Positions 1,131 through 46,199 of a stretch of 54,467 nucleotides of DNA are shown here, one piece after another. Below the pieces are notes generated by a model, which made no database searches, had not been told where the DNA came from, and was given only the letters and a program-made list of their open reading frames with translations. The DNA is from a virus. Where the stretch lies: the IMG/VR virus record IMGVR_UViG_3300031721_000009, positions 1-54,467 of that record; one strand, 5' to 3'. The stretch's first letter is position 1; each line of letters starts with the position of its first letter. The position numbers were made by a program, and so were the translations under genes.

Positions 1131-3001
1131 TAAAAGCAGCAGCAGCAACAGATGCAACGACTAAAGCAAACAATGCAAAGTCACAAGCAATCTCGGCAGC
1201 AGCAAGTGATGCGACTACTAAAGCAAACGCAGCATTGGTATCAGCAAAAGCATATGCAGATCAAGCAGAAGCAGATGCAGAATCAGCAGCAAGTTCAGAT
1301 GCGACTACTAAAGCAAACAATGCAAAGTCACAGGCGATCTCAGCAGCAGCAAGTGATGCGACTACAAAAGCAAACGCAGCATTGGCATCAGCAAAGTCAT
1401 ATGCAGATCAAGCAGAAGCAGATGCAGAATCAGCAGCAGCATCAGATGCGACTACTAAAGCAAATAATGCAAAATCACAGGCGATCTCAGCAGCAGCAAG
1501 TGATGCGACTACCAAAGCAAATGCAGCACAAGCAGCAGCAATTGCAGCAGTAACTAATGGCGCAGGCGCAGCATTTGATACTTTAGTTGAAATCCAAAAT
1601 GCAATGGCAACTGATTCAGAACTAAGTTCAGCAATCTCAAGTGTTACTTCGTCAGCAGCAGCAACTGCATCAGCAGACGCGACTACTAAAGCAAACGCAG
1701 CATTAGCAGCAGCAAAAGTTTATGCAGACGCAAATGATGCCAATACTAATACATGGCGCGGTATTTCAAATAGCACGTCATCGACTAGCACATCTGTATC
1801 AGCATCATCAGCAGCAGTAAAGGCTGCTTACGATAGATCTTGGCCTAACACAACCTATTCTGTAGGTGATGGTGGTCTTTCACAGATTAACTTTACTTCG
1901 GCTGATCACAGCAAGTTAAACGGCATTGAATCAGGAGCAACAGCAGATCAATCAGCAGCTCAACTATTAGCGTCTATTAAGACAGTAGATGTTGACGGCT
2001 CTGGTGGTATTAACGCTGGTAGATTAGATGGTCATGCTCTTACTTCAGCAGCAACCGCTAATACAGTAGCAGAGCGAGATAGCGCAGCGGATATAACTGC
2101 CAGACTATTTCGATCAAACTATGCGGAGCAAAGTACTGCACCAGCAACAACTGCGGATATTGCGTTCAGAAACAACTCCACTTCTGATAACTACACAAGG
2201 TTTATGACTAGCGGTGCATTTAAGTCGTACTGTGATTCTGTTGGCGTTAGTGTTGATGGACACACTCATAGCTACTTAGGTTTAACTGCCAAGGCTGCCG
2301 ATGCAAACTTATTAGACGGTGTCAATGGTGCTAGTTATATGCGTAGTGACGCAACTGACTATCAGAACAACACTATCTACCAACGTGGTTACTTAGTAAA
2401 CGAAACTGCTTATCGTGACAGAGGTGTTTACGGACATTATGACTCAACCAAAACTAACCACATCTGGTCTATGGGAACTGCTTATAAATCTAGCGCAACT
2501 GGAGTTAACTTCGGAAACCTTTATGGTCTAGCCTATAAGCATACTAACAATGCTACTGGTGGTGCGTTGGCTAGTGGACATCAGATGGTTTGGTGTCAGA
2601 ATGGTGGCCCAACATCAGCTATGGGTTCTAATGTTTGGACTTCTGGCGATGTGATTGCATATTCAGATGCAAGGGTTAAAGACAACCTAGAAGTAATACC
2701 TAACGCTATTGATAAAGTCAAGCAGTTAAATGGTTACACATACGACAGAACTGATAAGCAACCAGCAACTCCAGAGGAAGAAGGTACTATTTACGCTCAT
2801 AATCCTAAAAATAGATATGTTGGCGTTATAGCACAAGAAGTTCTTGCTGTACTACCAGAAGCAGTTTCTGGCGGTCCTAACAGCAATGAAGGATCAGAAG
2901 ATGATCATTACTCTGTAGCATACGGTAATCTAGTTGCATTGCTTATTGAAGCAATCAAAGAACAACAAGTTCAAATTGATGAGTTAAAAGCAAATCGCTA
3001 G
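884..3001 (+). CDS. tail fibre with C-terminal S74 intramolecular chaperone
   Basis: This 705-residue fibre begins MSRKIKKNGVMTSVSLDKNK, an N-terminus shared almost exactly with the genes at 3174 and 5160, so all three probably dock to the same partner. Residues ~85-290 are alanine-rich coiled-coil repeats. The middle has the phage-fibre motif TTYSVGDGGLSQINFTSADH and an HTHSY metal-site-like motif. The C-terminus is a Peptidase_S74 chaperone beginning at YSDARVK, with the self-cleavage Ser at residue ~594; known family members trimerise the fibre and then release themselves. The Shine-Dalgarno AGGAG precedes the ATG. Receptor binding is inferred; the ligand is unknown. Confidence 0.88.
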   Translation: MSRKIKKNGVMTSVSLDKNKKYKYSPTGDLVESTGELGDNEISISGSKSSLRRAADMERNISILATTMLTTDNGAGIDSPAEVKAAAATDATTKANNAKSQAISAAASDATTKANAALVSAKAYADQAEADAESAASSDATTKANNAKSQAISAAASDATTKANAALASAKSYADQAEADAESAAASDATTKANNAKSQAISAAASDATTKANAAQAAAIAAVTNGAGAAFDTLVEIQNAMATDSELSSAISSVTSSAAATASADATTKANAALAAAKVYADANDANTNTWRGISNSTSSTSTSVSASSAAVKAAYDRSWPNTTYSVGDGGLSQINFTSADHSKLNGIESGATADQSAAQLLASIKTVDVDGSGGINAGRLDGHALTSAATANTVAERDSAADITARLFRSNYAEQSTAPATTADIAFRNNSTSDNYTRFMTSGAFKSYCDSVGVSVDGHTHSYLGLTAKAADANLLDGVNGASYMRSDATDYQNNTIYQRGYLVNETAYRDRGVYGHYDSTKTNHIWSMGTAYKSSATGVNFGNLYGLAYKHTNNATGGALASGHQMVWCQNGGPTSAMGSNVWTSGDVIAYSDARVKDNLEVIPNAIDKVKQLNGYTYDRTDKQPATPEEEGTIYAHNPKNRYVGVIAQEVLAVLPEAVSGGPNSNEGSEDDHYSVAYGNLVALLIEAIKEQQVQIDELKANR
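1128..1560 (+). repeat. in-frame coiled-coil repeats, fibre 2
   Basis: Tandem units encode DATTKANNAKSQAISAA and DATTKANAALVSAKAYADQA. The DNA units match those in the 1-520, 3421-3750 and 5410-5830 blocks closely enough to allow recombination between fibre genes. Confidence 0.8.
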
Positions 3002-3030
3002 TCTATAAAGTACTTAGTACTATAAGAAGA

Positions 3031-3060
3031 AAAAACGCCCACGTTATGCGGGCGTTTTTA
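3031..3060 (+). terminator. intrinsic terminator after fibre gene
   Basis: AAAACGCCC pairs with GGGCGTTTT around a 9-base loop and runs into a T tract, 30 bases after the stop of the upstream fibre gene. Confidence 0.9.
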
Positions 3061-3096
3061 TTTGGATTTTATTTATGAATATAGGTTGTTAACTTT

Positions 3097-3115
3097 CATA
3101 AATATGGCATAAATA
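3097..3115 (+). promoter_or_regulatory. tandem T4-type late promoter boxes
   Basis: CATAAATA occurs at 3097-3104 and again at 3108-3115, 59-77 bases upstream of the fibre gene at 3174. T4 late promoters are TATAAATA, read by gp55/gp33-modified RNA polymerase. Confidence 0.65.
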
Positions 3116-3173
3116 CCAATAAGCACTGCGTTAGTAAGATCTGACGAGATGTTAAATAAAGGAATTCCAAACC

Positions 3174-5024
3174 ATGTCAAGAAAAATTAAAAAGAATGGT
3201 GTAATGACAAGTGTGTCATTAGACAAAAACAAAAAATATAAGTATGATGCAACAGGTGATTTAGTTGAATCAACTGGAACATTAGGCGATAACGAGATTT
3301 CTATGTCTGGTTCCAAGTCATCGCTTCGTAGAGCAGCAGATATGGAACGTAATATTTCCATATTAGCAACTACCATGTTGACAACCGATAACGGCGCAGG
3401 TGTTGATTCGCCAGCAGAAGTAAAAGCAGCAGCAGCAAGTGATGCAACTACTAAAGCAAACGCAGCATTAGTATCAGCAAAAGCATATGCAGATCAAGCA
3501 GAAGCAGATGCAGAATCAGCAGCAAGTTCAGATGCAACTAGTAAAGCAAATAATGCAAAATCACAAGCAATTTCATCAGCAGCAAGTGATGCGACTACCA
3601 AAGCAAATAATGCAAAGTCACAAGCAATTTCATCAGCAGCAAGTGATGCGACTACCAAAGCAAATAATGCAAAGTCACAAGCAATTTCAGCAGCAGCAAG
3701 TGATGCGACTACAAAAGCAAACGCAGCAAAGACAGCAGCAATTGCAGCAGTAACTAATGGCGCAGGGGCGGCATTTGATACTTTAGTTGAAATCCAAAAT
3801 GCAATGGCAACCGATTCGGAACTAAGTTCAGCGATCTCAAGTGTTACATCATCAGCAGCGGCGACAGCATCAGCAGATGCAACTACTAAAGCAAACGCAG
3901 CATTGGCAGCAGCAAAGGTTTATGCAGATGCAAATGACACAGATACTAATACATGGCGTGGTATTTCAAATAGTGTAACATCAACTAGCACGTCTATATC
4001 TGCATCATCAGCGGCAGTTAAAGCAGCATATGATAGATCATGGCCTAACACGACTTATAACTTTGCGGGGTCTACGTTTACATCTCGCAACACTGGCAAT
4101 GCTTTAGCAATTGACTCCGCCACCGCAAACACAATTGGTTATTGCAACGCTGCAAGCGCAGCAGGTTTCTCAGATGGCGGTATGTTTGTAGCAGCTCATA
4201 GCACATCATGGGTATCTCAGATATTCAGTAACTTTAGAACAGGCGAATTATCGTCACGTGGCATGAATAGCGGTACTTGGGGTTCATGGCGCAAGATTTG
4301 GGATAACCAAAACGACGGTTCTGGCTCTGGCTTAGATGCTGATTTATTAGATGGAGTTCAAGGTTCGCAATTCCTACGATCAGATGCTACTGATACTGCA
4401 TCGGGTCATTTAAGTTTGCGAGCAGGTGGTAATCATTTAGGAAACCATGAGTTTGCATCAGCATCACAAACATCTACTGGATACGGTGACGCGGGAATTG
4501 AGGTTAGAGAAGGTGGATATGGATCGGGTGTTGGAATGTCAGCTCCTAGAATCGGTATGCATTGGGGCGGCGTTGTCGCATCAAATATCTCTATGGAGAC
4601 GGACGGTACGATAACAATACGAAACAATCCAGGCACTGGCTATGAAAATTTTAGAGCTGCCAATATATCTGCAACTGGTGAAGTAACAGCATACTACTCA
4701 GATGAGCGTCTAAAGAACTTTAGTGGTAAGATCGAGAATGCATTAGACAAGGTATCGCAACTAAATGGCTATCATTACACTGGTAATGATGTAGCAGGCG
4801 AACTTGGGTATGATACTGATGTTCAGCAAGTTGGTGTATCAGCACAAGAAGTTGAAGCAGTAATGCCAGAGGTTGTTAAATCAGCACCGATTAATAGCGA
4901 CAATGGTACAGATTATAAAACTGTACAATATGAGCGTATGGTTCCGTTATTGATTGAGTCTATAAAAGAACTAAAATCAATGGTAGAAAGTCAAGCAGCG
5001 GAAATTGCTAAATTAAAAAAGTAG
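3174..5024 (+). CDS. tail fibre with C-terminal S74 intramolecular chaperone
   Basis: This 616-residue fibre shares the MSRKIKKNGVMTSV N-terminus and the ATKANNAKSQAISAA coiled-coil repeats with its neighbours. Its distal domain is different: residues ~300-500 include GTWGSWRKIWDNQNDGSGS and SGLDADLLDGVQGSQFL, typical of phage fibre tips. The S74 chaperone begins at YYSDERLK with the cleavage Ser at residue ~509, leaving a C-terminal part of ~108 residues ending in a coiled coil. A terminator and two late-promoter boxes precede it, so it can be transcribed independently. Confidence 0.88.
   Translation: MSRKIKKNGVMTSVSLDKNKKYKYDATGDLVESTGTLGDNEISMSGSKSSLRRAADMERNISILATTMLTTDNGAGVDSPAEVKAAAASDATTKANAALVSAKAYADQAEADAESAASSDATSKANNAKSQAISSAASDATTKANNAKSQAISSAASDATTKANNAKSQAISAAASDATTKANAAKTAAIAAVTNGAGAAFDTLVEIQNAMATDSELSSAISSVTSSAAATASADATTKANAALAAAKVYADANDTDTNTWRGISNSVTSTSTSISASSAAVKAAYDRSWPNTTYNFAGSTFTSRNTGNALAIDSATANTIGYCNAASAAGFSDGGMFVAAHSTSWVSQIFSNFRTGELSSRGMNSGTWGSWRKIWDNQNDGSGSGLDADLLDGVQGSQFLRSDATDTASGHLSLRAGGNHLGNHEFASASQTSTGYGDAGIEVREGGYGSGVGMSAPRIGMHWGGVVASNISMETDGTITIRNNPGTGYENFRAANISATGEVTAYYSDERLKNFSGKIENALDKVSQLNGYHYTGNDVAGELGYDTDVQQVGVSAQEVEAVMPEVVKSAPINSDNGTDYKTVQYERMVPLLIESIKELKSMVESQAAEIAKLKK
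3421..3750 (+). repeat. in-frame coiled-coil repeats, fibre 3
   Basis: Three consecutive units encoding DATTKANNAKSQAIS repeat nearly identically, with a 51-base period around 3580-3710. Confidence 0.8.
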
Positions 5025-5032
5025 TATAAATT

Positions 5033-5150
5033 GATCAAACGTAGGGAGTTTAACTCCCTGCTTAGTTTATGATTATCATAAAAGTTATGATTATCATAAA
5101 CACTGGAATATACAGAGTATATTCTTCGTATCAATCAATATCTTTAAGGA
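5033..5150 (+). promoter_or_regulatory. structured intergenic element, copy B
   Basis: This is a second copy of the element at 737-866. Stem 1 (5041-5050 with 5052-5061, core GGGAGT/ACTCCC) is stronger than in copy A. The palindrome TTTATGATTATCATAAA (5066-5082) is duplicated in tandem at 5085-5100. Stem 3 is GAATATAC/GTATATTC (5106-5113 with 5117-5124). The terminator-like fourth stem of copy A is absent. CATAAACA lies at 5095-5102, about 58 bases before the next ATG. Confidence 0.6.
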
Positions 5151-5159
5151 GATAAAATA

Positions 5160-7169
5160 ATGTCAAGAAAAATTAAAAAGAATGGTGTAATGACAAGTGT
5201 GTCATTAGACAAAAACAAAAAATATAAGTACAGTCCAACAGGTGATTTAGTTGAATCAACTGGAACATTAGGTGATAACGAGATTTCTATGTCTGGTTCC
5301 AAGTCATCGCTTCGTAGAGCAGCAGATATGGAACGTAACATTTCTATCTTAGCAACTACCATGTTGACAACCGATAATGGCTCAGGTGTTGATTCGCCAG
5401 CAGAAGTAAAAGCAGCAGCAGCAAGTGATGCAACTAGTAAAGCGAACGCAGCATTGGTATCAGCAAAGGCATATGCAGATCAAGCAGAAGCAGATGCAGA
5501 ATCAGCAGCAAGTTCTGATGCAACTACTAAAGCAAATAATGCAAAGTCACAAGCAATCTCAGCAGCAAGTTCTGATGCAACTACTAAAGCAAATAATGCA
5601 AAGTCACAAGCAATCTCAGCAGCAGCAAGTGATGCGACTACCAAAGCGAACGCAGCATTGGTATCAGCAAAGGCATATGCAGATCAAGCAGAAGCAGATG
5701 CAGAATCAGCAGCAAGTTCTGATGCAACTACTAAAGCAAATAATGCAAAGTCACAAGCAATCTCAGCAGCAGCAGCAGACGCAACTAGTAAAGCAAACGC
5801 AGCAAGAGCAGGTGCAGTTGCAGACGTAACTAATGGCGCAGGCGCAGCATTTAATACGCTTAAAGAAATCCAAGATGCAATGGCAACTGATTCAGAACTA
5901 AGTTCAGCAATCGCAAGTGTTACATCATCAGCGGCTTCTACGGCAGCAGCAGATGCGACTACTAAAGCAAACGCAGCATTGGCATCAGCAAAGGTTTATG
6001 CAGATGCACAGGACACCAATACTCATCGCGCAATTTCAAATAGCGTAACATCAACAAGCACATCTGTATCTGCATCATCAGCAGCAGTTAAAGCGGCTTA
6101 TGACAGGTCTTGGCCTAACACTACTTATTCAGTAGGCGATGGTGGTCTTTCACAGATCAACTTTACATCAACAGATCATACTAAGTTAAACGGCATTGAG
6201 TCAGGTGCAACAGCAGATCAAACTTCGGCACAATTATTAGCATCTCTTAAAACAGTTGATAGTAACGGTACTGCTGGATTGAACGCTGGAACAGTAGATG
6301 GATTGACATTGAATGGTACAACTAACAATGCTGCCAACAAAGTCGTTCGCACAGATGCCAATGGTTACGCTAACTTCGGTTGGATTAACACTGCATCGGG
6401 CGCAAGTACATCAGCACCAGCTCGTATATATGCATCAAATGATTCTTATTTGAGATATATGACGCCAGCTTCATTGGCTCCTTATATCTTGAATCAAGGA
6501 TCAACTAAGAACTCACATACTCACGCATATTTGCCAACGAGTGGTGGTAATGTATCTAACAATATCACATTCGGTTCAAACTACGGACACGGTGTAACTG
6601 GATTATATTCAGCTACTAAATTCCAACAAGTTTATAGTATGGGCGCAGCGTATACATTAGATGATAATGGTGTAGCGCCAGGCAATTTCTACGGAATAGC
6701 ATGGACTCATTCTAATAACACAAACGCAAACGGACGCAAGATCGCAGGTCATCACGCAGCATATATGTCTGCTGGTACTACTCGTTCTGCAATTGGTGAT
6801 AGTATCTGGACTTCAGGTAACGTTACTGCATACTCAGACGAACGTGTTAAGGAAAATCTTGAGATAATTCCAGATGCATTGGACAAAGTATGTCAACTAA
6901 ATGGTTATACGTATGATAGAACAGACCTTACTCCGGCAACACCGGAAGAAGTGCCTACTGTATACGCACATAATCCTACTGACAGACATGTCGGTGTTAT
7001 TGCACAGGAAGTACTAAAAGTATTACCTGAAGCAGTTACTGGTGGACCAAATAGCACACCTGGATCAGAAGATGATCATTACTCGGTGGCTTACGGAAAT
7101 ATCGTAGCACTATTAATTGAAGCAGTCAAGGAATTGAAAGCAGAAATTGATGTATTGAAAAGTAAGTAA
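5160..7169 (+). CDS. tail fibre with C-terminal S74 intramolecular chaperone
   Basis: This 669-residue fibre has the same N-terminus as the 884 and 3174 genes, followed by coiled-coil repeats to residue ~285. The distal region contains TTYSVGDGGLSQINFTSTDH, HTHAYLP and YLRYMTPASLAPYI. The S74 chaperone begins at AYSDERVK (Ser ~559). Its last 110 residues closely match those of the 884 gene (YTYDRTD, VGVIAQEVL, GGPNS, EDDHYSVAYGN), so 884 and 5160 share both ends and differ mainly in the middle. The Shine-Dalgarno AAGGAG precedes the ATG. Confidence 0.88.
   Translation: MSRKIKKNGVMTSVSLDKNKKYKYSPTGDLVESTGTLGDNEISMSGSKSSLRRAADMERNISILATTMLTTDNGSGVDSPAEVKAAAASDATSKANAALVSAKAYADQAEADAESAASSDATTKANNAKSQAISAASSDATTKANNAKSQAISAAASDATTKANAALVSAKAYADQAEADAESAASSDATTKANNAKSQAISAAAADATSKANAARAGAVADVTNGAGAAFNTLKEIQDAMATDSELSSAIASVTSSAASTAAADATTKANAALASAKVYADAQDTNTHRAISNSVTSTSTSVSASSAAVKAAYDRSWPNTTYSVGDGGLSQINFTSTDHTKLNGIESGATADQTSAQLLASLKTVDSNGTAGLNAGTVDGLTLNGTTNNAANKVVRTDANGYANFGWINTASGASTSAPARIYASNDSYLRYMTPASLAPYILNQGSTKNSHTHAYLPTSGGNVSNNITFGSNYGHGVTGLYSATKFQQVYSMGAAYTLDDNGVAPGNFYGIAWTHSNNTNANGRKIAGHHAAYMSAGTTRSAIGDSIWTSGNVTAYSDERVKENLEIIPDALDKVCQLNGYTYDRTDLTPATPEEVPTVYAHNPTDRHVGVIAQEVLKVLPEAVTGGPNSTPGSEDDHYSVAYGNIVALLIEAVKELKAEIDVLKSK
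5410..5830 (+). repeat. in-frame coiled-coil repeats, fibre 4
   Basis: Alternating units of the same alanine-rich repeat. The end of this block (5770-5940) closely matches 40-220 of the first fibre, including the ARAGAVADVTNGAGAAFNTL segment. Confidence 0.8.
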
Positions 7170-32338: not shown

Positions 32339-33340
32339 ATGGCTTCATTAGCAGAAATCCGAGCAAAATTACTCGAACAAGACTCTCGTTCATCTGGAAC
32401 GAAATCAACAACCAAATCAGACAATACTGTCTTCCCTCACTGGAGTATTCCAGACAACACATCAGCAACACTACGATTTTTACCTGACGGTGATACGAAC
32501 AACCCATTCTTTTGGTTGAAGCGTGAAATGATTCGTTTAGAATTCCCAGGCGTAAAAGGTGGTGATGAATCACGTCCTGTAACAATTCAAGTACCATGTA
32601 TTGAAATGTATGACGACGAAAAGACAACATGTCCTATTCACGCGGAATTGCGTCAATGGTTCAAAGATCCTTCATTGGAAGATGTTGCACGTAAATATTG
32701 GAAGAAAAAATCTTACTTGTTTCAAGGCTTCGTCACTGAAAGTGAACTAGTTGAAGAAGCACCTGCAAACCCAATTCGTCGTTTCATGATTTCACCTCAA
32801 ATCTTTAAGGTAATCAGCGCAGCGTTGATGGATGTAGATTTCACTTCATTACCTACTGATTATGATCAAGGTACAGATTTCAAAGTAGTGAAAGGTCAGA
32901 ATGGTAAGTGGGCAGATTATAGTACTTCTAACTGGGCTCGTCGCGAGCGTAGTTTAAATCAAGAAGAACTAGATGCAGTCGACACAAATGGATTATTTAA
33001 TCTATCAGACTTCCTTCCTAAAAAGCCAGATCAGGCGCACTTAGATGCGATGGTTGAGATGTTTGAAGCATCTGTAGATGGTCAGTTATACGACACCGAG
33101 AAGTGGGGTAATTATTACCGTCCTTGGGGTGTAGATGCACCGACATCTAAGCCTGCTGCATCTGTTGTTCAATCAGCACCTGTTGCTGAGAAGGAGATCA
33201 CGTCAGACGATATCCCTTTTAAAGCAGATCCTGCTCCTGTAGCCGCAGCGCCTGTCGCAGCAGCACCAGCGGGATCAGAGGCAAAGCCTACTGCGCAAGA
33301 TATTCTTGCAGCAATTCGCAATCGTAAAGCAGAAGCATAA
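32339..33340 (+). CDS. 32: single-stranded DNA-binding protein gp32
   Basis: The 333-residue protein shows the gp32 layout: a basic N-terminus with SLAEIRAKLLEQ, an OB-type core with zinc ligands in VPCIEMYDD (C87) and TTCPIHAEL (C98, H101), aromatic DNA-contact residues (NPFFWLKRE, YWKKKSYLFQGFV), and a flexible Ala/Pro linker (~270-318) before a short tail DILAAIRNRKAEA. It coats ssDNA and organises replication and recombination with UvsX and UvsY, which follow. AAAGGA precedes the ATG. Confidence 0.95.
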   Translation: MASLAEIRAKLLEQDSRSSGTKSTTKSDNTVFPHWSIPDNTSATLRFLPDGDTNNPFFWLKREMIRLEFPGVKGGDESRPVTIQVPCIEMYDDEKTTCPIHAELRQWFKDPSLEDVARKYWKKKSYLFQGFVTESELVEEAPANPIRRFMISPQIFKVISAALMDVDFTSLPTDYDQGTDFKVVKGQNGKWADYSTSNWARRERSLNQEELDAVDTNGLFNLSDFLPKKPDQAHLDAMVEMFEASVDGQLYDTEKWGNYYRPWGVDAPTSKPAASVVQSAPVAEKEITSDDIPFKADPAPVAAAPVAAAPAGSEAKPTAQDILAAIRNRKAEA

Positions 33341-33389: not shown

Positions 33390-34490
33390 ATGGCAAGACC
33401 ATTTGATGTGTCTAAGTTCCGTCGTAGTATTACCAAGGCGGTTCCTGGTCTAAGCACTGGATTTCACGATCCTGATACTTGGATTTCAACAGGTAATTTT
33501 ACATTAAACAAACTTATTAGCGGAGACTTTGAAAAAGGCATTCCGCTAGGTAAAGTAACAGTATTAGCGGGCGAATCTGGAGCAGGAAAATCATACATTG
33601 CTTCGGGAAATATTATTCGTCATGCACAAGAGCAAGATATTTATGTTGTTCTAATTGACTCGGAAAATGCACTAGACGAAGCATGGTTACATGCGTTAGG
33701 TGTAGATACGAGTGAAGATAAATTGATGAAGTTAAACGTAGCAATGATCGACGATGTTGCAAAAATCATGTCTGACTTGATGAAAGATTACAAGACTGAG
33801 CATGGTGATAAAGAGCCAGCAGATCGTCCTAAAATCTTATTTGTAGTAGACAGTCTAGGTATGTTATTAACACCTACAGATGTCAAGCAGTTTGAAGCAG
33901 GTGACATGAAGGGCGACTTGGGTCGTAAGCCTAAAGCACTAACATCACTTGTGCGTAACACTGTAAATATGTTGGGTGAATACAACGTAGGTTTACTTGC
34001 GACGAATCATACTTATGCATCACAAGATATGTTCGATCCAGATGATAAAATCTCTGGTGGTCAAGGATTTATCTATGCAAGTTCAATTGTAATCGCAATG
34101 CGTAAATTGAAGTTGAAAGTTGACGAAGATGGCAATAAAACGACTACTGTAAATGGTATTCGTGCAGCGTGTAAGATTATGAAGACACGTTATGCTAAAC
34201 CATTTGAAAGCGTACAAGTAGAAATTCCGTATGATACTGGTATGAGTCCTTACAGTGGATTGACTGAATTTTTTGAAGCGAAAGGTGCATTGAAAAAGTC
34301 TGGTAACAGTCTTGAGTACATTAGCCCAGTAACTGGTGAAATCATCAAGAAATTCCGTAAAGCATGGTCAAAGAATACAGACGATTGTCTAGATATTATG
34401 ATGCGCGAATGGGATCAACAGCCTGAAGAGGTGATGGATTCTAGTGGTGATGAGGCAGTTATCGGGGAGATGATCAATGAGTCTGAGTGA
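33390..34490 (+). CDS. uvsX: RecA-like recombinase UvsX
   Basis: Walker A is GESGAGKS (61-68) and Walker B KILFVVDSLG (D154); LLATNHTYAS and ISGGQGFIYASS match the DNA-binding loop region of UvsX. It is 366 residues against 391 in T4. It forms filaments on gp32-coated DNA for strand invasion and recombination-dependent replication. AAGGAG precedes the ATG; the last 14 bases overlap the next gene. It forms a cluster with gp32 and uvsY. Confidence 0.97.
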   Translation: MARPFDVSKFRRSITKAVPGLSTGFHDPDTWISTGNFTLNKLISGDFEKGIPLGKVTVLAGESGAGKSYIASGNIIRHAQEQDIYVVLIDSENALDEAWLHALGVDTSEDKLMKLNVAMIDDVAKIMSDLMKDYKTEHGDKEPADRPKILFVVDSLGMLLTPTDVKQFEAGDMKGDLGRKPKALTSLVRNTVNMLGEYNVGLLATNHTYASQDMFDPDDKISGGQGFIYASSIVIAMRKLKLKVDEDGNKTTTVNGIRAACKIMKTRYAKPFESVQVEIPYDTGMSPYSGLTEFFEAKGALKKSGNSLEYISPVTGEIIKKFRKAWSKNTDDCLDIMMREWDQQPEEVMDSSGDEAVIGEMINESE

Positions 34491-34725: not shown

Positions 34726-35184
34726 ATGAGTAAATGGTATCGTAAGGTCACTGGAAACATGGCAGAAATAGTTAACGCTATTTCACACTATGAAATACAA
34801 GTTTCAGAGGCTAAGTTTGAATGTGGTATGAAAGGTAGTTTGGAAAAGCACAGTCGTGATATTCCGGGCATCGTTGAACATCGTTTCAATCAACTACAAG
34901 AAACAGAAGCGATACTTGAATATTTAAATACCGAAATGCGCAAATTGCGTAGTCAGAAGTTCAGACACTTCACTGAGCATTACCAACGCGCACTAACATC
35001 AGCAGATGCGAAAGCATTTGTAGATGGTGAGCCTGATGTAGTTGATTTGCAGCATCTTATTGTTGAATTTTCAATGGTGAGAAATAAGTTCATGGGTGTT
35101 ATCAAAGCACTTGAAGTTAAGCAATGGCAACTTACCAACGTAATTAAGTTACGATGTGCAGGTTTAGAAGACGCAACACTATAA
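34726..35184 (+). CDS. uvsY: recombination mediator UvsY
   Basis: The 152-residue, mostly helical protein has ILEYLNTEMRKLRSQKFRHF and a C-terminal half resembling UvsY of aquatic T4-like phages (FMGVIKALEVKQWQL, then IKLRCAGLED). T4 UvsY is 137 aa and loads UvsX on gp32-coated ssDNA. The order gp32-uvsX-x-uvsY supports the call. Similarity to T4 UvsY itself is weak. A terminator follows. Confidence 0.82.
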   Translation: MSKWYRKVTGNMAEIVNAISHYEIQVSEAKFECGMKGSLEKHSRDIPGIVEHRFNQLQETEAILEYLNTEMRKLRSQKFRHFTEHYQRALTSADAKAFVDGEPDVVDLQHLIVEFSMVRNKFMGVIKALEVKQWQLTNVIKLRCAGLEDATL

Positions 35185-36582: not shown

Positions 36583-38040
36583 ATTAAAACTGCAACAATC
36601 ATATTGAAAGACGAAGTCAATGCAAAGATAGAGGGTCTTGAACTTACTACTAGGAAAAAACTAGAAGCAAAGTTTAAGTTTTTCTTACCATATGCACGAC
36701 ACGTTCCTTCCTATAAATTAGGAAGATGGGATGGATGTGAGCGATATTTCACTATCGGTGGTATTACATTTGTCAGTCTATTAGAAACAGCGATTCCTAT
36801 TATCATTGAAGATGGTTATCAGATTGAACTTGATGATCTTCGAACTCATAACAAACTTGAGTTTGATTTGGTAGATGAATCTACATTTCAACATAAAGCA
36901 TGGCCCGCAAAGCATCGATTTGAAGGTAAGCCCGTAACATTGCGCGATTATCAAATCGATATCGTAAACAAGTTTATAGAAACACCCCAATGTATACAAG
37001 AGATTGCAACAGGCGCTGGTAAGACATTGATCACAGCAGCATTGAGTTACAAAGCAGAAAAGTACGGTCGCTCTATTGTTATTGTACCAAACAAAGATTT
37101 GGTGAATCAGACATATGCAGATTATGTTAACTTAGGATTAGATGTTGGCGTATATTTTGGTGATAAGAAAGATTTCGGTCGTACTCATACTATTTGTACA
37201 TGGCAGAGTCTTAACGTTATTCGTAAACGATTCAAGAATGGCGAACAAGATTGGGGACTACAAGATTTTGCAGAAGATGTAGTTTGTATCATAGTTGACG
37301 AAGTTCACCAAGCGAAAGCAGATGTTCTAAAAGATATGCTCACTAAAGAATTTGCAAATGTGCCTCTACGATGGGGACTAACTGGTACAATACCAAAAGC
37401 AGAACATGAACAGATGACATTGCAGGTTAGTTTGGGCAATGTGGTAAATCGTCTAGCAGCATCCGAATTGCAAGACATGGGCGTACTGAGTAATTGTCAT
37501 GTAAATATTGTACAAATGAAAGAAATTACAGACTATACTAATTATCAAAGTGAATTGACGTTCTTAACAACGAATTCACATAGAATCGGTTACATGGGTG
37601 ATTTGATAAAGAAGATTTCGCAATCGGGTAATACTCTAGTATTGGTTGATCGTATCAAAGCAGGTGAAATGTTAGTAGAGCATATTGGTGGTGACACTAC
37701 TTTCGTAAAAGGTGCAATGAAATCATCTGATCGTAAAGACGCATATGATGAAATTAATGAAGCGACTAATAGTATTACTATTGCGACATATGGTGTTGCA
37801 GCAGTAGGACTTAACATACCGCGTATATTTAACATGGTGTTAATTGAGCCTGGGAAGAGTTTCGTACGAGTAATACAATCAATTGGTCGTGGTGTGCGTA
37901 AGGCAGATGACAAGGATCATGTTGAGATATATGATTTCACTAGTACAGCAAAATTCAGTAAGCGACATTTAACTGAACGTAAAAAGTTCTATCGTGAGGC
38001 AAACTATCCATTCTCAATAGAGAAAGTAGATTACAAGTAA
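36583..38040 (+). CDS. uvsW: recombination helicase UvsW (probable ATT start)
   Basis: This superfamily 2 helicase has Walker A ATGAGKT, DEVH (IIVDEVHQAKAD), GLTGT and motif VI QSIGRGVRK, and the UvsW N-terminal domain YKLGRWDGCERYF (T4 YGNWDGRIRL). No ATG lies upstream of the domain. The usual fallback, TTG at 36604, has no Shine-Dalgarno; ATT at 36583 is 7 bases after GGAG and restores the first strand (KTATIIL) matching T4 KVHFHDF. UvsW unwinds R-loops and remodels forks and Holliday junctions. A strong promoter leaves a ~20-base leader. Confidence 0.93.
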   Translation: MKTATIILKDEVNAKIEGLELTTRKKLEAKFKFFLPYARHVPSYKLGRWDGCERYFTIGGITFVSLLETAIPIIIEDGYQIELDDLRTHNKLEFDLVDESTFQHKAWPAKHRFEGKPVTLRDYQIDIVNKFIETPQCIQEIATGAGKTLITAALSYKAEKYGRSIVIVPNKDLVNQTYADYVNLGLDVGVYFGDKKDFGRTHTICTWQSLNVIRKRFKNGEQDWGLQDFAEDVVCIIVDEVHQAKADVLKDMLTKEFANVPLRWGLTGTIPKAEHEQMTLQVSLGNVVNRLAASELQDMGVLSNCHVNIVQMKEITDYTNYQSELTFLTTNSHRIGYMGDLIKKISQSGNTLVLVDRIKAGEMLVEHIGGDTTFVKGAMKSSDRKDAYDEINEATNSITIATYGVAAVGLNIPRIFNMVLIEPGKSFVRVIQSIGRGVRKADDKDHVEIYDFTSTAKFSKRHLTERKKFYREANYPFSIEKVDYK

Positions 38041-39773: not shown

Positions 39774-40466
39774 ATGCAACAAATATTGTACAAGTGCGAA
39801 TACTGTAATAAAGACTTTAAGCGTGAGAATACGCTTATTGTGCATTTATGTGTGCAAAAGAAGCGACATATGCAAGAGACTGATAAAGATGTTCAATTGG
39901 GATATCGTGCATATCAGTTATTTTACCGTATTGGAACAAATTCAAAGAAAGATAAATCTTACACTGAATTTGCAAAAAGTTCATATTATGCTGCGTTCAT
40001 AAAGTTTGGTAAATATTGTATTGAAGTTAAGATAGACGATGTTACTGGATTCACCACATGGTTATTAAAAAATCAAGTAAAATTAGATCATTGGACACAT
40101 GATGCAAGATTTAGTGGTTGGGTAAAAGAGCGATTGAAAGTAGAAAGTGTTGATCGTGCAGTTGAGCGCACGATATTATCAATGCAAGACTGGGCAGAAG
40201 ATAGAGAAAATGATTGGAATACATATTTCAAAACGGTAGCACCTAGTCTAGCGGTATTTCATATATGTTCTGGTAGAATTAGTCCATGGGTTATATATGC
40301 TAGTAATGATGCACAGAGTTTGTTGGATATGTTGAATAACAAGCAGATTGAAATGATCGTAGATTATATTGATCCGCAATATTGGCAGATACGATTAAAG
40401 CGTAAGAACGAAGTTAAAGATTTACAATGGGTGGAAACTATTTTGAAACAAGCGAGTATAGGATAA
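39774..40466 (+). CDS. C2H2-type zinc-finger protein (230 aa)
   Basis: The N-terminus is a C2H2-like finger: YKCEYCNKDFKRENTLIVH with C8, C11, H24 and H32. The rest is mainly helical with Trp and Tyr residues (GFTTWLLKNQVKLDHWTHDA, WAEDRENDWNTYFK). The finger suggests DNA or protein binding; placement between clamp-loader and QueC-like genes points to replication or modification. The stop overlaps the next ATG (TAATG). Confidence 0.75.
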   Translation: MQQILYKCEYCNKDFKRENTLIVHLCVQKKRHMQETDKDVQLGYRAYQLFYRIGTNSKKDKSYTEFAKSSYYAAFIKFGKYCIEVKIDDVTGFTTWLLKNQVKLDHWTHDARFSGWVKERLKVESVDRAVERTILSMQDWAEDRENDWNTYFKTVAPSLAVFHICSGRISPWVIYASNDAQSLLDMLNNKQIEMIVDYIDPQYWQIRLKRKNEVKDLQWVETILKQASIG

Positions 40467-41095
40467 TGAAAATCAATTTATGTGGGGTGGATATCCCTTT
40501 ACCAGATGGAAAATATGCAATCAATGTCAGTGGTGGAGCAGATAGTGCATTATTGCTTTATATATTAATGACGTATACGCAACATGATGTTATTGTAACA
40601 ACTATGGCGGATGATGAACTCGCTTTGATCAATTCAATTTCAGCATCGCGAGTTGTTAATAAAGTAATAAAATTAACTGGTAACTTTAATGTAGAGCATA
40701 GTATAACATATGTACAGCAATATAGACATCTCGATCAATCACTTATTGACGATGAAACTATTAAAGTATATTATACTGGTGTCACTAGCAATCCGCCAGA
40801 TGATATATCTATTGGATTTGGTGATGAAGATGTTGGTTCAGGCGAGACTCTTGGACTAGGTCTGCCTGATAGATCTCCTAATGTAGTGCGAGATATATGG
40901 GCGGCTGAAGGCGCTATATGTTTACCATTCTTCAATGTTGATAAGACGAAAATTGCTGAAATATATGATTATTTAGGAATAACTGAAACACTATTTCCAA
41001 TGACAGTTAGTTGCACAGTTAATACAGATGATACACACTGTGGTGAGTGTTGGTGGTGTGAAGAGCGTAAATGGGCATTTGGTAGATTGGTATGA
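40466..41095 (+). CDS. QueC-like PP-loop ATPase
   Basis: The ATG at 40466 overlaps the upstream stop and is preferred over a longer frame from 40427. The PP-loop INVSGGADSALL (residues 19-30) is the ATP-pyrophosphatase motif SGGxDS. The C-terminal C183, C192, C195 and C198 with HCGECWWCEERKWAF match the zinc site of QueC (HCG.C..C..R..AF). FNVDKTKIAEIYDYLGI fits the QueC TKAE segment. QueC makes 7-cyano-7-deazaguanine, used in queuosine and phage DNA modification. Other pathway genes are not in this window, and the middle has diverged. It overlaps the next gene by 4 bases. Confidence 0.72.
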   Translation: MKINLCGVDIPLPDGKYAINVSGGADSALLLYILMTYTQHDVIVTTMADDELALINSISASRVVNKVIKLTGNFNVEHSITYVQQYRHLDQSLIDDETIKVYYTGVTSNPPDDISIGFGDEDVGSGETLGLGLPDRSPNVVRDIWAAEGAICLPFFNVDKTKIAEIYDYLGITETLFPMTVSCTVNTDDTHCGECWWCEERKWAFGRLV

Positions 41096-41670
41096 TAGTT
41101 AATACAGATATTGATATAGATATTGCAAACAGAGATAAATTGCTTGCTTTAATCAAAAACACACCTGCAATGATCAAGCGAGACACCACTGAAAAAAAGC
41201 ACAACACAGGTGTATATTTTCACGAGATGCCGACTAATCCATATAATGGCATGGCAACCATAGATCATAAAGAAGCCGAGAAGATGGGTTACTTTAAAAT
41301 GGATTTGTTGAATGTGTCAGTTTATAATGATATTAATAATAAAGCAGAACTGGATGAATTACTTGAGATGGAACCTATGTGGGATCTATTGGAACATAGA
41401 GAGATTGTAGAGCAGTGTTTCCATATCCATTCGCATTATGGAATTGTTCAGCAGATGAAGCCCAAAAGTGTTGAACAATTGGCAGCAGTGTTAGCAATGA
41501 TACGACCAGCAAAGAGTTATCTAATAGGAAAAGATTGGGATACTGTGATGAATGATATTTGGGTAAAGCCAGAAGACGGTGGTTATTTCTTTAAAAAGTC
41601 GCATTCGTATAGTTACGCGATGGTAATTGTAATGCAATTGAATAAGATTGTTAAAGAGTCTTTTTCATAA
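41092..41670 (+). CDS. miniature DnaE-like (C-family polymerase core) protein
   Basis: In 192 residues this protein follows, in order, the core motifs of bacterial DNA polymerase III alpha. TDIDIDIANRDKLLAL (5-20) corresponds to E. coli PDFDVDFCMEKRDQVI with catalytic D401/D403; KKHNTGVYFHEMP to KHAGGVVIAP; GYFKMDLLNV (66-75) to GLVKFDFLGL with D555; PKSVEQLAAVLAMIRPAKS to the LIALVALFRPGP segment; and FFKKSHSYSYAMVI to GFNKSHSAAYALVS. The PHP, thumb and C-terminal domains are absent. Its ATG overlaps the QueC-like stop. Activity is unproven. Confidence 0.75.
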   Translation: MIVNTDIDIDIANRDKLLALIKNTPAMIKRDTTEKKHNTGVYFHEMPTNPYNGMATIDHKEAEKMGYFKMDLLNVSVYNDINNKAELDELLEMEPMWDLLEHREIVEQCFHIHSHYGIVQQMKPKSVEQLAAVLAMIRPAKSYLIGKDWDTVMNDIWVKPEDGGYFFKKSHSYSYAMVIVMQLNKIVKESFS

Positions 41671-42022
41671 GATTAATACTTCGACGTTTTATTCGTTTTG
41701 TAATAGAATTGCTGAGTCTAACTTCTGGTCCAGCAATTATGGTCATCTGTTTTACATTAAAACTTTGTACACAATGTTGAAAATGCCACCTATTTATCAA
41801 TGCAATATTGATTGGTAACTGTCTATTAGTTTCCCACCACCATTCCTCTCCTAACATGAGAAATAAATGTTTTTCATCTACATTGTCCAGTCGTTCAAAC
41901 ATGTACATACTTGCGATTTGAGTGTCTATGTTTTGCATGACACCGACGTATTCGTTTCCAGCGTAAGATAGCACTGTTAGGAATGGATATTGGTCGAGTA
42001 ATTCTTCATATTGTTTTTGCAT
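41651..42022 (-). CDS. unrecognised late protein (123 aa)
   Basis: It is preceded on its strand by a perfect TATAAATA late box and converges on the DnaE-like gene, overlapping its end by 20 bases. The protein begins MQKQYEELLDQYPFLTVLSY and contains GEEWWWETNRQLPINI and a basic C-terminus (SITKRIKRRSINLMKK). The pattern recurs in T4-like phages of aquatic bacteria as an unnamed protein (from memory). A structural or assembly role fits the promoter. Confidence 0.75.
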   Translation of the reverse strand: MQKQYEELLDQYPFLTVLSYAGNEYVGVMQNIDTQIASMYMFERLDNVDEKHLFLMLGEEWWWETNRQLPINIALINRWHFQHCVQSFNVKQMTIIAGPEVRLSNSITKRIKRRSINLMKKTL

Positions 42023-42956: not shown

Positions 42957-43964
42957 ATGAGATTAATAATAGATTTTACAAGAACGTTAGTGCCTTCCAA
43001 TTGGAAGTCTTCGCCGGGCGGTTGGGTTTCTGGTAATTGTCCTGTGTGTGTTCTTAACGGACATTCGCATGACACCAAAGGTCGCGGTGGTTTTCTTATC
43101 ACTGATGAAAAATTCCAATACAATTGTTTCAATTGTAATTACGCTACTGGCTGGTCTGTCGACAAGCGCATAGATGATCGATTAAGGAAGTTATATAAAG
43201 CATTCGGTGCCGATGATAGTGACATTCAACGATTGCAACTACAGTTGCTTGAAGATCGTGATATTGATGCTATTCTTATCAAGCAACGAGATAAAGATGC
43301 TCCTATAAATATCACATGGAAAGCGCAAGAATTACCAGAAGGTGCAAAGCCTATATCTGAGTATACTGAAGTAACCCCCGAACTTGAAAGAGTATTAGAA
43401 TACATGGTATCAAGAGGATTAGATCCTACTGATCCGCGTTTCTATTATTCACCATCTATGTCACCAGCCCGAATGAAGAATAGATTTATTCATGTATTCA
43501 CTTATCAAGGTGTGATAGTAGGATATACTGCTAGATGGGTAGGTACTCCTTCAAAAGAAATTCCAAAATACTTTACTAAGCAACCTAAAGTCGACTTCGT
43601 ATATGGATTAGATAGACAAACTAATAAAAAGATTGTTATCGTGACAGAGGGACAACTGGATGCATACTTTACAGATGGAATAGCAGTTGGTTCGAATAAC
43701 ATAAACATGCAACAAGGTAACATAATCGATAATTTGAATAAGAAAATTATATTGTTGCCTGATGCAGATGCTGCAAGTAAATCATTGGTATCTACCGCAA
43801 TTGAACGAGGCTGGTATGTGGCATTCCCAGAATGGGATGACTGTAAAGATGCAGCAGACGCAGCATTGAAGTATGGTGAATTATTCACTATACAAACTAT
43901 ATTAGATAGTGCGATACACGGCAATTTAAAAATACAAGTAATGATGAAAAATTACTGCAAATAA
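42957..43964 (+). CDS. 61: DNA primase gp61
   Basis: The N-terminal zinc ribbon has C28, C31, C57 and C60 (NCPVCVLNG, YNCFNCNYATGW). The TOPRIM domain shows IVIVTEGQLDAYFTD (E231) and IILLPDADAA (D269, D271). It is 335 residues against 342 in T4 gp61. It makes RNA primers on the lagging strand with helicase gp41, encoded two genes downstream. The ATG is the only start before the zinc ribbon and has no Shine-Dalgarno, consistent with a leaderless transcript. Confidence 0.93.
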   Translation: MRLIIDFTRTLVPSNWKSSPGGWVSGNCPVCVLNGHSHDTKGRGGFLITDEKFQYNCFNCNYATGWSVDKRIDDRLRKLYKAFGADDSDIQRLQLQLLEDRDIDAILIKQRDKDAPINITWKAQELPEGAKPISEYTEVTPELERVLEYMVSRGLDPTDPRFYYSPSMSPARMKNRFIHVFTYQGVIVGYTARWVGTPSKEIPKYFTKQPKVDFVYGLDRQTNKKIVIVTEGQLDAYFTDGIAVGSNNINMQQGNIIDNLNKKIILLPDADAASKSLVSTAIERGWYVAFPEWDDCKDAADAALKYGELFTIQTILDSAIHGNLKIQVMMKNYCK

Positions 43965-44804: not shown

Positions 44805-46199
44805 ATGAGCGAAACAAAAGAATATACAGTGGAACTACAGCAACTTTTTATTGAGTTCCTGGCACAAGATAAAGATCTATTCCTACGAGTGAATAATATT
44901 TTAGAAGCAAGTTACTTCGATAGAACACTCAGGAAGACAGTGCAGTTTCTTCAAGATCATGTATCATCGTATGGTGCATTGCCCACGACAGATCAGATCA
45001 AAGCACTCACTAGCATTAAACTGGCTGGAATTGGCGATACTGTCGATGATAGGCATAAGAGTTGGTTTATTGATGAATTTGAAACATTCTGCAAGCATAA
45101 AGCATTGGAAGCAGCAATTCTTCAAAGTGCAGATCTTGTAGAAAAAGGTGAATTTGGCGAAGTAGAGCGCATCATTAAAGAAGCAGTGCAAGTAGGTCTT
45201 GCGAAGCATATGGGTATCAACTATTGGGATGATCCTAAAGAGCGTATTGAAGCAGCAAGGCATTCGCGAGCAGGTACAAGCACTGGTTGGAAGTCGGTTG
45301 ATTATAAATTGTTTGGTGGATTTAACCCAGGCGAGTTGAATATCTTCGCAGCAGCATCAGGTGGTGGTAAAAGTTTATTCTTACAAAACTTGGCACTTAA
45401 TTGGTCATTGATGGGTAAGAATGTTTTATATGTTTCACTAGAATTAAGTGAGTCATTGTCAGGTTTACGACTTGATGGTATGTTAACTGGTATGAATACA
45501 AAAGCGATCTTCAACGATGTAGAAGGTACAGCGTTGAAAGTAGGTATGCAAGGCAAGTCTGCGGGCAAACTACAGATAATTCAAGTACCCAACGGTATCA
45601 CTACAAATGATTTGACAAGTTACATGAGAGAATTTGAAGTTCAGAATGGTGTACGCATCGATGCTATGTTGGTTGACTACTTAGATCTAATGACTCCCGC
45701 AGGACGAAAGATCAATGCGAGTGACTTGTTTATTAAAGATAAGTATGTTTCTGAAGAATTGCGTAACTTCGCAGTAGAGAATAATGTATTGTTTGCAACT
45801 GCGTCACAGTTGAATAGATCGGCAGTTGAAGAAGTAGAATTCGATCATAGTCATATCTCTGGTGGTTTAAGTAAGATTCAAACAGCAGATAACGTAATTG
45901 GTATCTTTACAAGTCAAGCGATGAGAGAGCGTGGTAGGTATCAAATTCAATTTATGAAGACACGTAGTTCATCTGGTGTAGGACAGAAAGTTGATTTAGC
46001 GTTTGATATAGAAGGGTTGCGAATTACCGACTTGCCTGATGATGAGCAAGATACTATAACGAATCAATCTAGTACAATATATGATAAATTAAAGAAGAAA
46101 AACACGATAGTTCAAAGTCCCAATGAGGCAGCGCCTGAGCCTACTAGTACAGAAGACCAATCAGCGCGTCTACGTAGTATTTTAAGAAAACAAGATTAA
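44805..46199 (+). CDS. 41: replicative DNA helicase gp41
   Basis: This DnaB-family hexameric helicase has an N-terminal helical domain (residues ~1-130) and a RecA-type core. Walker A is AAASGGGKSLF (182-192), then VLYVSLELSE (motif 1a), MLVDYLDLM (Walker B) and an arginine-finger-like region after TASQLNR. It is 464 residues against 475 in T4. It unwinds DNA at the fork and couples to primase gp61. TAGGA precedes the ATG. A 5-codon ATG frame (MLIK) in the leader is ignored. Confidence 0.96.
   Translation: MSETKEYTVELQQLFIEFLAQDKDLFLRVNNILEASYFDRTLRKTVQFLQDHVSSYGALPTTDQIKALTSIKLAGIGDTVDDRHKSWFIDEFETFCKHKALEAAILQSADLVEKGEFGEVERIIKEAVQVGLAKHMGINYWDDPKERIEAARHSRAGTSTGWKSVDYKLFGGFNPGELNIFAAASGGGKSLFLQNLALNWSLMGKNVLYVSLELSESLSGLRLDGMLTGMNTKAIFNDVEGTALKVGMQGKSAGKLQIIQVPNGITTNDLTSYMREFEVQNGVRIDAMLVDYLDLMTPAGRKINASDLFIKDKYVSEELRNFAVENNVLFATASQLNRSAVEEVEFDHSHISGGLSKIQTADNVIGIFTSQAMRERGRYQIQFMKTRSSSGVGQKVDLAFDIEGLRITDLPDDEQDTITNQSSTIYDKLKKKNTIVQSPNEAAPEPTSTEDQSARLRSILRKQD

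What the first reader, a model, noticed from the sequence alone, without database searches (positions are those of the whole stretch)
41092..41670. Miniature DnaE-like protein keeping the three catalytic aspartates
A 192-residue protein matches, in order, five core motifs of bacterial Pol III alpha: the DxDxD palm site (D6-D10 against E. coli D401/D403), the HxGGV-like segment, K-M-D71 (against D555), the RPG-like fingers segment (RPAKS) and KSHS-x-x-YA. PHP, thumb, clamp-binding and OB domains are missing. T4-like phages replicate with a B-family polymerase, so a stripped C-family core is unexpected. It could be a minimal polymerase, a terminal transferase-like enzyme, or a DnaE mimic that poisons or hijacks the host replisome.
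Basis: partly seen in the sequence, partly recalled or inferred. Interest (0 to 1): 0.78.

Follow-up and report, generated by a model that had tools for sequence, protein, structure and literature searches.

The report
Half of a split phage polymerase
The small protein is one half of the catalytic core of a bacterial-type DNA polymerase that large phages encode as two separate genes; this arrangement was predicted in 2021, and no laboratory test of it was found.

Summary
The 192-residue ORF at 41092-41670 carries the C-family (DnaE) metal-binding aspartates and later core motifs in order. D6, D8, D10 and D71 are kept in every distinct relative that covers them (137, 137, 137 and 138). Its AlphaFold model (pLDDT 91) aligns end to end with the Pol III alpha core. 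It is not a complete miniature polymerase: it starts at the place of E. coli DnaE residue 397. The preceding GxGRGS half of the palm is a second, distant gene in 14 of 14 phage relatives; the model of one relative's copy ends at DnaE residue 393. The same 14 phages encode a B-family polymerase. Best reading: a two-subunit, PHP-less, nearly thumbless C-family core assembled in trans, working beside the B-family replicase. Assembly and activity are inferred. Iyer et al. 2021 (PMC7824862) already described this split enzyme in group 2.2 jumbo phages; the window is a new, uncultivated member. Its own N-half was not found in about 218 kb of this virus; a related contig overlapping its end carries one.

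The parts
41092..41670 (+). C-terminal half of the split C-family polymerase core (192 aa; palm strand with DxDxD, truncated thumb/fingers, K-x-D, RPxK, KSHS)
41107..41121 (+). D6-x-D8-x-D10 codons, equivalent to E. coli DnaE D401/D403/D405
41197..41211 (+). K36-H37-x-x-G40 codons (E. coli K510, H511, G514); K36 itself is not invariant
41296..41304 (+). K69-M-D71 codons, equivalent to E. coli K553/D555
41503..41514 (+). R138-P139-A-K141 codons (R138, P139 = E. coli R639, P640)
41596..41616 (+). K169-S-H171-x-x-x-Y175 codons (E. coli K758, H760, Y764)
40427..41095 (+). QueC/PP-loop-like ORF whose stop overlaps the start of the polymerase half (ATGA); possible translational coupling (inference)
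41651..42022 (-). Tail-to-tail neighbour (phrog_11637, function unknown), conserved beside the C-half in 27 of 29 loci tested
32339..33340 (+). Single-strand DNA-binding protein (phrog_1192)
33390..34490 (+). UvsX-like recombinase
34726..35184 (+). UvsY-like recombination mediator
36604..38040 (+). DNA helicase (phrog_16), UvsW-like by its position compared with RaK2
42957..43964 (+). DNA primase (phrog_47)
44805..46199 (+). DnaB-like replicative helicase (phrog_19)

Best explanation
The ORF encodes the C-terminal subunit of a two-subunit, minimal C-family DNA polymerase. The N-terminal subunit (about 170 aa, encoded far away, in RaK2 and Paride close to a clamp-loader gene) supplies the GxGRGS nucleotide-binding part of the palm. 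The C subunit supplies the metal-binding strand (D6/D8), the second metal-binding position (K69-x-D71) and a reduced fingers region (RPxK, KSHS). The break lies just before the DxDxD strand, so the two chains would have to meet at the active site. The assembled core lacks PHP, almost all of the thumb, and everything beyond E. coli residue 781. It should therefore be a short-patch or accessory polymerase that works within the phage's own T4-like replisome beside the B-family replicase, for example in repair, gap filling or extension during recombination-dependent replication. Shown: homology, conserved catalytic residues, complementary structural coverage, co-occurrence in relatives, coexistence with family B polymerase. 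Inferred: association of the halves, polymerase activity, the role, and the presence of the N half in the window's own virus.
For: The model of the C half aligns over residues 1-192 with E. coli DnaE 397-781 (2hnh Z 8.8; Taq 3e0d Z 10.3, rmsd 3.4, 191 aligned). All 15 entries with Z 6.7 or more are Pol III alpha or PolC, two of them (9qrn, 9qpc) labelled only 'DNA polymerase' with PolC-like residue numbers; the next row is Z 3.5. The model of a relative's N half aligns residues 69-168 (4jom, Z 10.9) or 72-168 (2hnh, Z 10.5) with E. coli 278-393 or 279-393; the top 14 entries are again Pol III alpha, PolC or 'DNA polymerase' (9qrn, 9qpc, 9qrl), and the next row is Z 2.8. The two coverages abut without overlap. 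Profile searches of solved-structure sequences hit only Pol III alpha: 6 of 6 hits for the C half (best E 0.02) and 9 of 9 for the N half (best E 0.0019). The N half is found by PF07733 in 14 of 14 phage relatives, over the curated cut-off. Of 60 listed phage records with the C half, 59 are also listed with the N half (compared by eye). Catalytic residues: C half D6/D8/D10 137 of 137 covered and D71, K69, H37, G40 138 of 138; N half G134/G136/R137/G138/S139 113 of 113 covered. Both halves lie on one contig in G006, G029, G033 and G038. B-family polymerase in 14 of 14 relatives and in contigs G001 and G002 of the window's own virus. dN/dS 0.063-0.077.
Against: No complex was modelled and no activity is known. 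For the window's own virus the N half was not found: about 218 kb from two contigs 99.9% identical to the window gave a best E of only 0.6. Of 20 records of this clade searched (window included) 1 had it; of 13 further contigs with the C half 1 had a true N half; all these are fragments. The nearest support is a contig that meets the end of this virus's contig at 88.8% and 93.3% nucleotide identity and carries an N half about 19 kb beyond the overlap. Foldseek alone gives only 3 matches at E 0.001 or better for the C half and none for the N half, and the aligner's own note warns that mostly helical models, as the N half is, can reach Z about 14 without being relatives. The E. coli R390 position is acidic in the N half (E165 in 108, D in 5 of 113 covered), so the nucleotide-binding site is not identical to DnaE. 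Residues 1-64 of the N half have no DnaE match.
Confidence: 0.65

Rival explanations
1. The pair forms a catalytically competent nucleotidyltransferase of the pol-beta/C-family fold that is not a templated DNA polymerase (for example terminal transferase, or nucleotide transfer to another substrate).
For: The thumb is nearly gone, and the basic residue at E. coli R390 is replaced by an acidic one. The catalytic residues stay invariant.
Against: The finger motifs of Pol III (RPxK, KSHS) are kept, and the gene sits between a helicase gene and primase/helicase genes, which suits DNA synthesis. The fold matches that stand out are all Pol III alpha, PolC or 'DNA polymerase'; one putative nucleotidyltransferase (4ok0) appears only at chance level (E 0.6).
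Confidence: 0.12
2. The protein no longer catalyses but serves as a structural or regulatory subunit of the phage replisome.
For: It is extremely reduced, and Pfam recognises it only below threshold (7 of 68 family members at E 0.01).
Against: D6, D8, D10, D71, K69 and H171 are kept in every distinct sequence that covers them; scaffold use alone would not be expected to keep them all.
Confidence: 0.12
3. DnaE mimic that poisons or hijacks the host replisome.
For: Homology to host DnaE only.
Against: The alignment ends at E. coli residue 781, before the clamp- and tau-binding regions (location recalled); a second half of the same enzyme is found in the same phages; relatives infect very different hosts (Pseudomonas, Klebsiella, Salmonella, Erwinia, Agrobacterium and others), so no single host replisome is matched.
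Confidence: 0.04
4. Complete single-chain miniature polymerase that works without a partner.
For: It holds all three metal-binding aspartates on one chain. No N half was seen in about 218 kb of this virus.
Against: It lacks the GxGRGS palm segment that belongs to the same active site, and that segment is a separate gene in 14 of 14 relatives.
Confidence: 0.05
5. Decaying remnant or annotation artefact.
For: None found beyond the small size.
Confidence: 0.02

Closest known systems
[quoted passage not shown] 2021, Viruses 13:63, PMC7824862)
   Same: Two standalone proteins from distant genes, C half with the Mg- and template-binding part, no other Pol III domains, accompanied by a family B polymerase; relatives of the window protein include Atu_ph07, which that paper names in group 2.2.
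   Different: The window comes from an uncultivated virus (habitat not told by the tools) whose protein is 35-49% identical to those of the 14 named phages aligned here; its own N half is not yet located in it.
phrog_11778 and phrog_11127 (PHROGs families 'DNA polymerase', 197 and 171 positions)
   Same: The window protein matches phrog_11778 over 4-190 (E 5e-65); the partner half of a relative (66% identical at the C half) matches phrog_11127 (E 1e-43).
   Different: They are separate families; the tables seen do not say that they are halves of one enzyme.
Bacterial DnaE (DNA polymerase III alpha), E. coli DnaE
   Same: Fold and catalytic residues D401/D403/D405/K553/D555. D405 is conserved in DnaE groups but is Asn in PolC (PMC3919608, passages), and D10 matches it in 137 of 137 covered, so the protein is DnaE-like rather than PolC-like at that position.
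   Different: Split in two, no PHP found, hardly any thumb (61 residues separate D8 from K69 against 150 in E. coli), shortened fingers, nothing beyond E. coli residue 781.
Cyanobacterial split DnaE joined by trans-splicing inteins (recalled)
   Same: One Pol III alpha encoded by two distant genes.
   Different: There the halves are spliced into one chain; here the N half stops and the C half starts within a few residues of the homology border in most sequences printed, with no room for an intein at the junction (read by eye).

Membership tests
Split minimal Pol III alpha of group 2.2 jumbo phages (Iyer et al. 2021) | Standalone C-terminal half with the DxDxD and K-x-D metal-binding motifs and no other Pol III domain | tested here: met
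Split minimal Pol III alpha of group 2.2 jumbo phages (Iyer et al. 2021) | Standalone N-terminal NTP-binding half encoded at a distant place in the same genome | tested here: inconclusive
   Not found in about 218 kb of the window's virus, which is not a complete genome; present in 14 of 14 named relatives and in a contig overlapping the end of this virus's contig at 88.8-93.3% identity
Split minimal Pol III alpha of group 2.2 jumbo phages (Iyer et al. 2021) | Family B DNA polymerase in the same virus | tested here: met
   PF00136 over cut-off in G001 and G002 (6 of 19 fragments in all), whose 20.6-kb stretches around the gene are over 99.98% identical to the window
Split minimal Pol III alpha of group 2.2 jumbo phages (Iyer et al. 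2021) | T4-like replication set (SSB, UvsW-type helicase, DnaB-type helicase) | tested here: met
C-family DNA polymerase (DnaE) | Catalytic Asp residues equivalent to E. coli D401, D403, D555 (absolutely conserved in the C family, PMC3919608, passages) | tested here: met
C-family DNA polymerase (DnaE) | Palm/fingers fold of Pol III alpha | tested here: met
   All 15 entries with Z 6.7 or more are Pol III alpha or PolC (two labelled only 'DNA polymerase'); the next is Z 3.5. Predicted model only
C-family DNA polymerase (DnaE) | GxGRGS palm segment on the same chain as DxDxD | tested here: not met
   Absent from P0001; it lies in a separate gene in 14 of 14 relatives
C-family DNA polymerase (DnaE) | PHP domain | tested here: not met
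   None in P0001 and no match at E 0.01 in 15 of 15 records, window included; the control found it in 14 of 14 genomes
C-family DNA polymerase (DnaE) | (HhH)2 / HHH_6 domain | tested here: not met
   0 of 15 records at E 0.01; control found in 11 of 14 genomes
C-family DNA polymerase (DnaE) | Templated DNA synthesis | not testable with these tools
   needs purified proteins

The most novel reading that the evidence does not exclude
The two halves reconstitute a working two-chain C-family polymerase that retains an ancestral, pre-fusion form of Pol III (as Iyer et al. suggested) and serves as a dedicated second polymerase for one strand or for recombination-primed synthesis in jumbo phages that already own a family B replicase. 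It would be an exceptionally small C-family polymerase, working without PHP and with almost no thumb.
Probability: 0.15. Interest if true: 0.8.

Novelty: new member of a known kind. Interest (0 to 1): 0.42.

Why it matters
If the halves assemble, C-family catalysis needs only about 360 residues on two chains, without PHP and almost without a thumb. That would narrow down the minimum of the bacterial replicase. It would also show phages running family B and family C polymerases together, and it would bear on whether Pol III arose by fusion of small pieces or was cut down by phages. The system is directly testable: the halves are small, the catalytic residues are known, and one relative is recorded on E. 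coli K-12.

Tried and rejected
Sequence comparison of the single protein with solved structures found nothing relevant (one hit, E 0.71, an unrelated enzyme). Pfam alone is sub-threshold for P0001, and 7 of 68 family members match DNA_pol3_finger at E 0.01. Profile against the single E. coli DnaE sequence with hhalign gave a low probability for the C half (4%, E 0.0096, although the aligned residues are the right ones) and 94% for the N half. Profiles against solved-structure sequences gave only weak E-values (0.02 and 0.0019), although every hit was Pol III alpha. So the case for the C half rests on the PHROG matches, the structure model and the colinear conserved residues together.

An A-family polymerase was looked for: no record of 15 had one over the cut-off. 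PHP and HHH_6 were looked for in the same 15 records and not found. Fused N+C versions were looked for in the loci held (L001-L325, with overlapping re-fetches): 5 held both profiles, and in all 5 the 'N' match was a separate ORF of 566-576 aa. Family searches of 4 of these 5 (L221, L223, L237, L249; L213 was not searched) show a contiguous C-family polymerase, not a fusion of the halves. Foldseek for the N half gave no match at E 0.001 or better, but its first 10 rows are all DnaE.

In genome contigs, 10 of 89 pattern matches were confirmed, all in MAGs. Eight of those assemblies were searched for the N half: 5 have a short N-half ORF, a sixth only a long DnaE, two nothing. Misbinned phage is the likely reading. 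Whether the split form is ancestral or derived was not tested by a tree: I judged that the short alignable core without a root would not decide it.

Literature: the searches were 'jumbo phage' + 'DNA polymerase III alpha' + 'split', 'RaK2' + 'DNA polymerase III alpha', five terms from 2021 on, 'minimal DNA polymerase III' + 'phage', 'split DNA polymerase III', 'PA5oct' + 'DNA polymerase III', 'DNA replicases' + 'double-stranded DNA viruses' + 'DnaE', 'phage Paride' + 'DNA polymerase'. Six papers were opened, passages or sections only: PMC7824862, PMC6102473, PMC5259590, PMC3919608, PMC11079468, PMC10761892. Of these only PMC7824862 describes the split, and none of the passages reports a test of it. 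Listed but not opened: PMC9703825, PMC11179266, PMC5167688, PMC7412058, PMC8504454, PMC11728774. This is a statement about this open-access library only.

Full report
What is there. The ORF at 41092-41670 encodes 192 residues. Its ATG overlaps the stop of the upstream ORF, and its 3' end overlaps by 20 bases a gene on the other strand. It lies in a T4-like replication cluster: SSB, UvsX, UvsY, a helicase in the place of UvsW, then primase and DnaB-type helicase. The window itself is a 54-kb virus record, with tail fibre, sheath and terminase genes in its first 31 kb.

Family. The protein matches phrog_11778 'DNA polymerase' at E 5e-65 over almost its full length and phage DnaE (phrog_405) at E 6e-10. 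tblastn finds it in 63 phage records, all under 60% identity; of the 60 listed, all but three (85.7, 94.0 and 109.5 kb) are over 280 kb.

Catalytic residues. In the alignment of 52 sequences, down to 35% identity to the window, the invariant columns include D6, D8, D10, H37, G40, K69, D71, R138, P139, K141, H171 and Y175. In the larger set of 138 distinct sequences (from 190 loci, some of them overlapping) D6, D8 and D10 are kept in 137 of 137 that cover them, and K69 and D71 in 138 of 138; the one uncovered sequence begins at a contig end. Adding E. coli DnaE to the alignment places D6, D8, D10, K69 and D71 on D401, D403, D405, K553 and D555. Timinskas et al. (PMC3919608, passages seen) state that D401, D403 and D555 are absolutely conserved in the C family and that D405 is conserved in DnaE but Asn in PolC. 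The window protein is thus DnaE-like there.

The missing half. PF07733 and phrog_405 find a second short ORF in 14 of 14 phage relatives. Translated, it ends with GxGRGS...EF(L/F) and a few residues more, just before the position where the window protein starts. By the coordinates the two genes lie between about 14 kb (XacN1, CM1) and 224 kb (Phosso) apart. In RaK2 and Paride two or three genes separate the N half from a clamp-loader gene. Of 60 listed phage records with the C half, 59 are also listed with the N half (compared by eye; GenBank and RefSeq copies of one genome count twice). The exception is a 109.5-kb record; three C-half records and 46 N-half records were not listed, so it may be among those. 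Four further contigs hold both halves: G006, G029, G033:C2 and G038:C57.

Structure. AlphaFold models from alignments of 68 and 70 sequences have mean pLDDT 91.4 and 91.2 and pTM 0.73 and 0.71; the N-half model is of a relative's protein (G006). VIA alignment puts the C half (residues 1-192) on E. coli DnaE 397-781, and the N half (residues 69-168, or 72-168 in 2hnh) on E. coli 278-393. All entries with Z over 6 are Pol III alpha or PolC; 9qrn, 9qpc and 9qrl are labelled only 'DNA polymerase' and are taken as PolC from their residue numbers. The next rows are Z 3.5 and 2.8. The aligner's note warns that helical models can reach high Z without kinship, so the N half's match is trusted because one family fills the list and the sequence profile agrees. 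The two coverages abut with three residues between them. This is the strongest evidence that they are the two pieces of one core. Interface and complex were not modelled.

What is absent. No PHP and no HHH_6 match at E 0.01 was found in 15 of 15 records, while controls were found in 14 of 14 and 11 of 14 genomes. The stretch between D8 and K69 is 61 residues against 150 in E. coli, so most of the thumb (its boundaries are recalled) is gone. Residues 1-64 of the N half match nothing in DnaE.

Other polymerases. All 14 phage relatives encode a B-family polymerase over the Pfam cut-off, and none an A-family one over it. Of 19 contigs of the close clade 6 have a B-family polymerase. Two of these, G001 and G002, are the window's own virus: their 20.6-kb stretches around the gene are over 99.98% identical to the window, and the main alignments of G002 and G003 pieces to the window are 99.93% identical or more.

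The negative result. For the window's virus the N half was not found. G002 and G003 together cover about 218 kb; an hmmsearch without filters gave a best E of 0.6 for the N profile, while the C half was found at 1.5e-98 in both. Of 20 records of the close clade, including the window, 1 had the N half, and that one (G006) is 66% identical at the C half. Of 13 other contigs with the C half, 1 had a true N half and 5 had only the long polymerase described below. A 40-base pattern from the end of G002 occurs in a 192-kb contig that meets that end at 88.8% and 93.3% identity over two pieces and carries an N half about 19 kb beyond the overlap. This contig is a related virus, not the same one, so the presence of the N half in the window's virus stays an inference.

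A further polymerase in some relatives. Five IMG/VR contigs with the C half carry, 4.5-6 kb downstream, a contiguous 566-576-aa C-family polymerase without PHP. It is a separate protein that matches phage DnaE far better than the split halves (phrog_405 E 1e-69).

Prior description. Iyer et al. 2021 (PMC7824862; passages, section 3.4.1 and part 1 of section 3.5 seen) describe this: a phage-specific minimal Pol III alpha in group 2.2 jumbo phages, split into two proteins from distant genes, beside a family B polymerase, with a suggested role in one strand or repair, and a possible ancestral status. Genome papers mention parts: CBB_328 as a 172-aa truncated alpha (PMC5259590, passages), gp316 in Atu_ph07 (PMC6102473, passages), ORF111 and ORF394 in Callisto (PMC11079468, passages; which half each is was not checked). 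The Paride paper (PMC10761892, passages) uses Iyer's group 2.2. No experimental test was found in the searches named under Tried and rejected.

Mechanism. The most likely mechanism is reassembly in trans: the N half binds the triphosphate through GxGRGS, the C half binds two metals through D6/D8/D71, and the reduced fingers hold the template (family knowledge; Iyer et al. call the N part NTP-binding and the C part Mg- and template-binding). Lacking thumb and clamp-binding regions, the enzyme should be distributive unless a phage protein holds it, so an accessory role near the UvsX/UvsY and primase-helicase machinery fits best. Conserved residues and predicted fold are shown; assembly, activity and role are inferred.

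Verdict. Observation confirmed, interpretation partly supported, novelty low because the system was described in 2021. Interest remains moderate, since no test was found and the split is now placed to within a few residues.

Noticed in passing
L213, L221 (13115-14815 +), L223, L237, L249: Five IMG/VR contigs with the C half carry, 4.5-6 kb downstream, a contiguous PHP-less C-family polymerase of 566-576 aa, apparently a further polymerase (4 of 5 checked by family search: PF07733 E 2e-40 or better and PF17657 E 1.5e-14 or better in three, phrog_405 E 1e-69 in two; catalytic motifs read by eye). The best relative among phage records is 38% identical, in a 484-kb uncultured phage LR756508.1.
   Followed up: partly
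window 41651-42022 (-): phrog_11637 gene of unknown function lies tail to tail with the polymerase half; a homologue on the opposite strand lies shortly downstream of the C half in 27 of 29 loci tested (not found in XacN1 L089 and CM1 L092 by this search).
   Followed up: partly
window 40427-41095 (+): QueC/PP-loop-like ORF (Pfam QueC E 4.5e-9) overlaps the start of the polymerase half; RaK2, PBECO4 and GAP32 have a shorter gene labelled virion structural protein there.
   Followed up: no
L337 / L342 (contig PBPT01000016.1, 335,231 bp): A contig filed under a Neomarinimicrobiota MAG holds both polymerase halves and looks like a large phage genome binned with a bacterium; nine other MAG contigs also hold the C half.
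   Followed up: partly
L355 (end of G002): The window's virus seems to encode a cysteine desulfurase-like protein at the end of contig G002 (recognised by eye from the DNA, no search done).
   Followed up: no
window 884-7169 (+): Three successive ORFs of 616-705 aa match the same distal tail-fibre families, and two stretches of contig G003 from this region also align at 84.5% DNA identity to another place in the window, suggesting repeated fibre modules.
   Followed up: no
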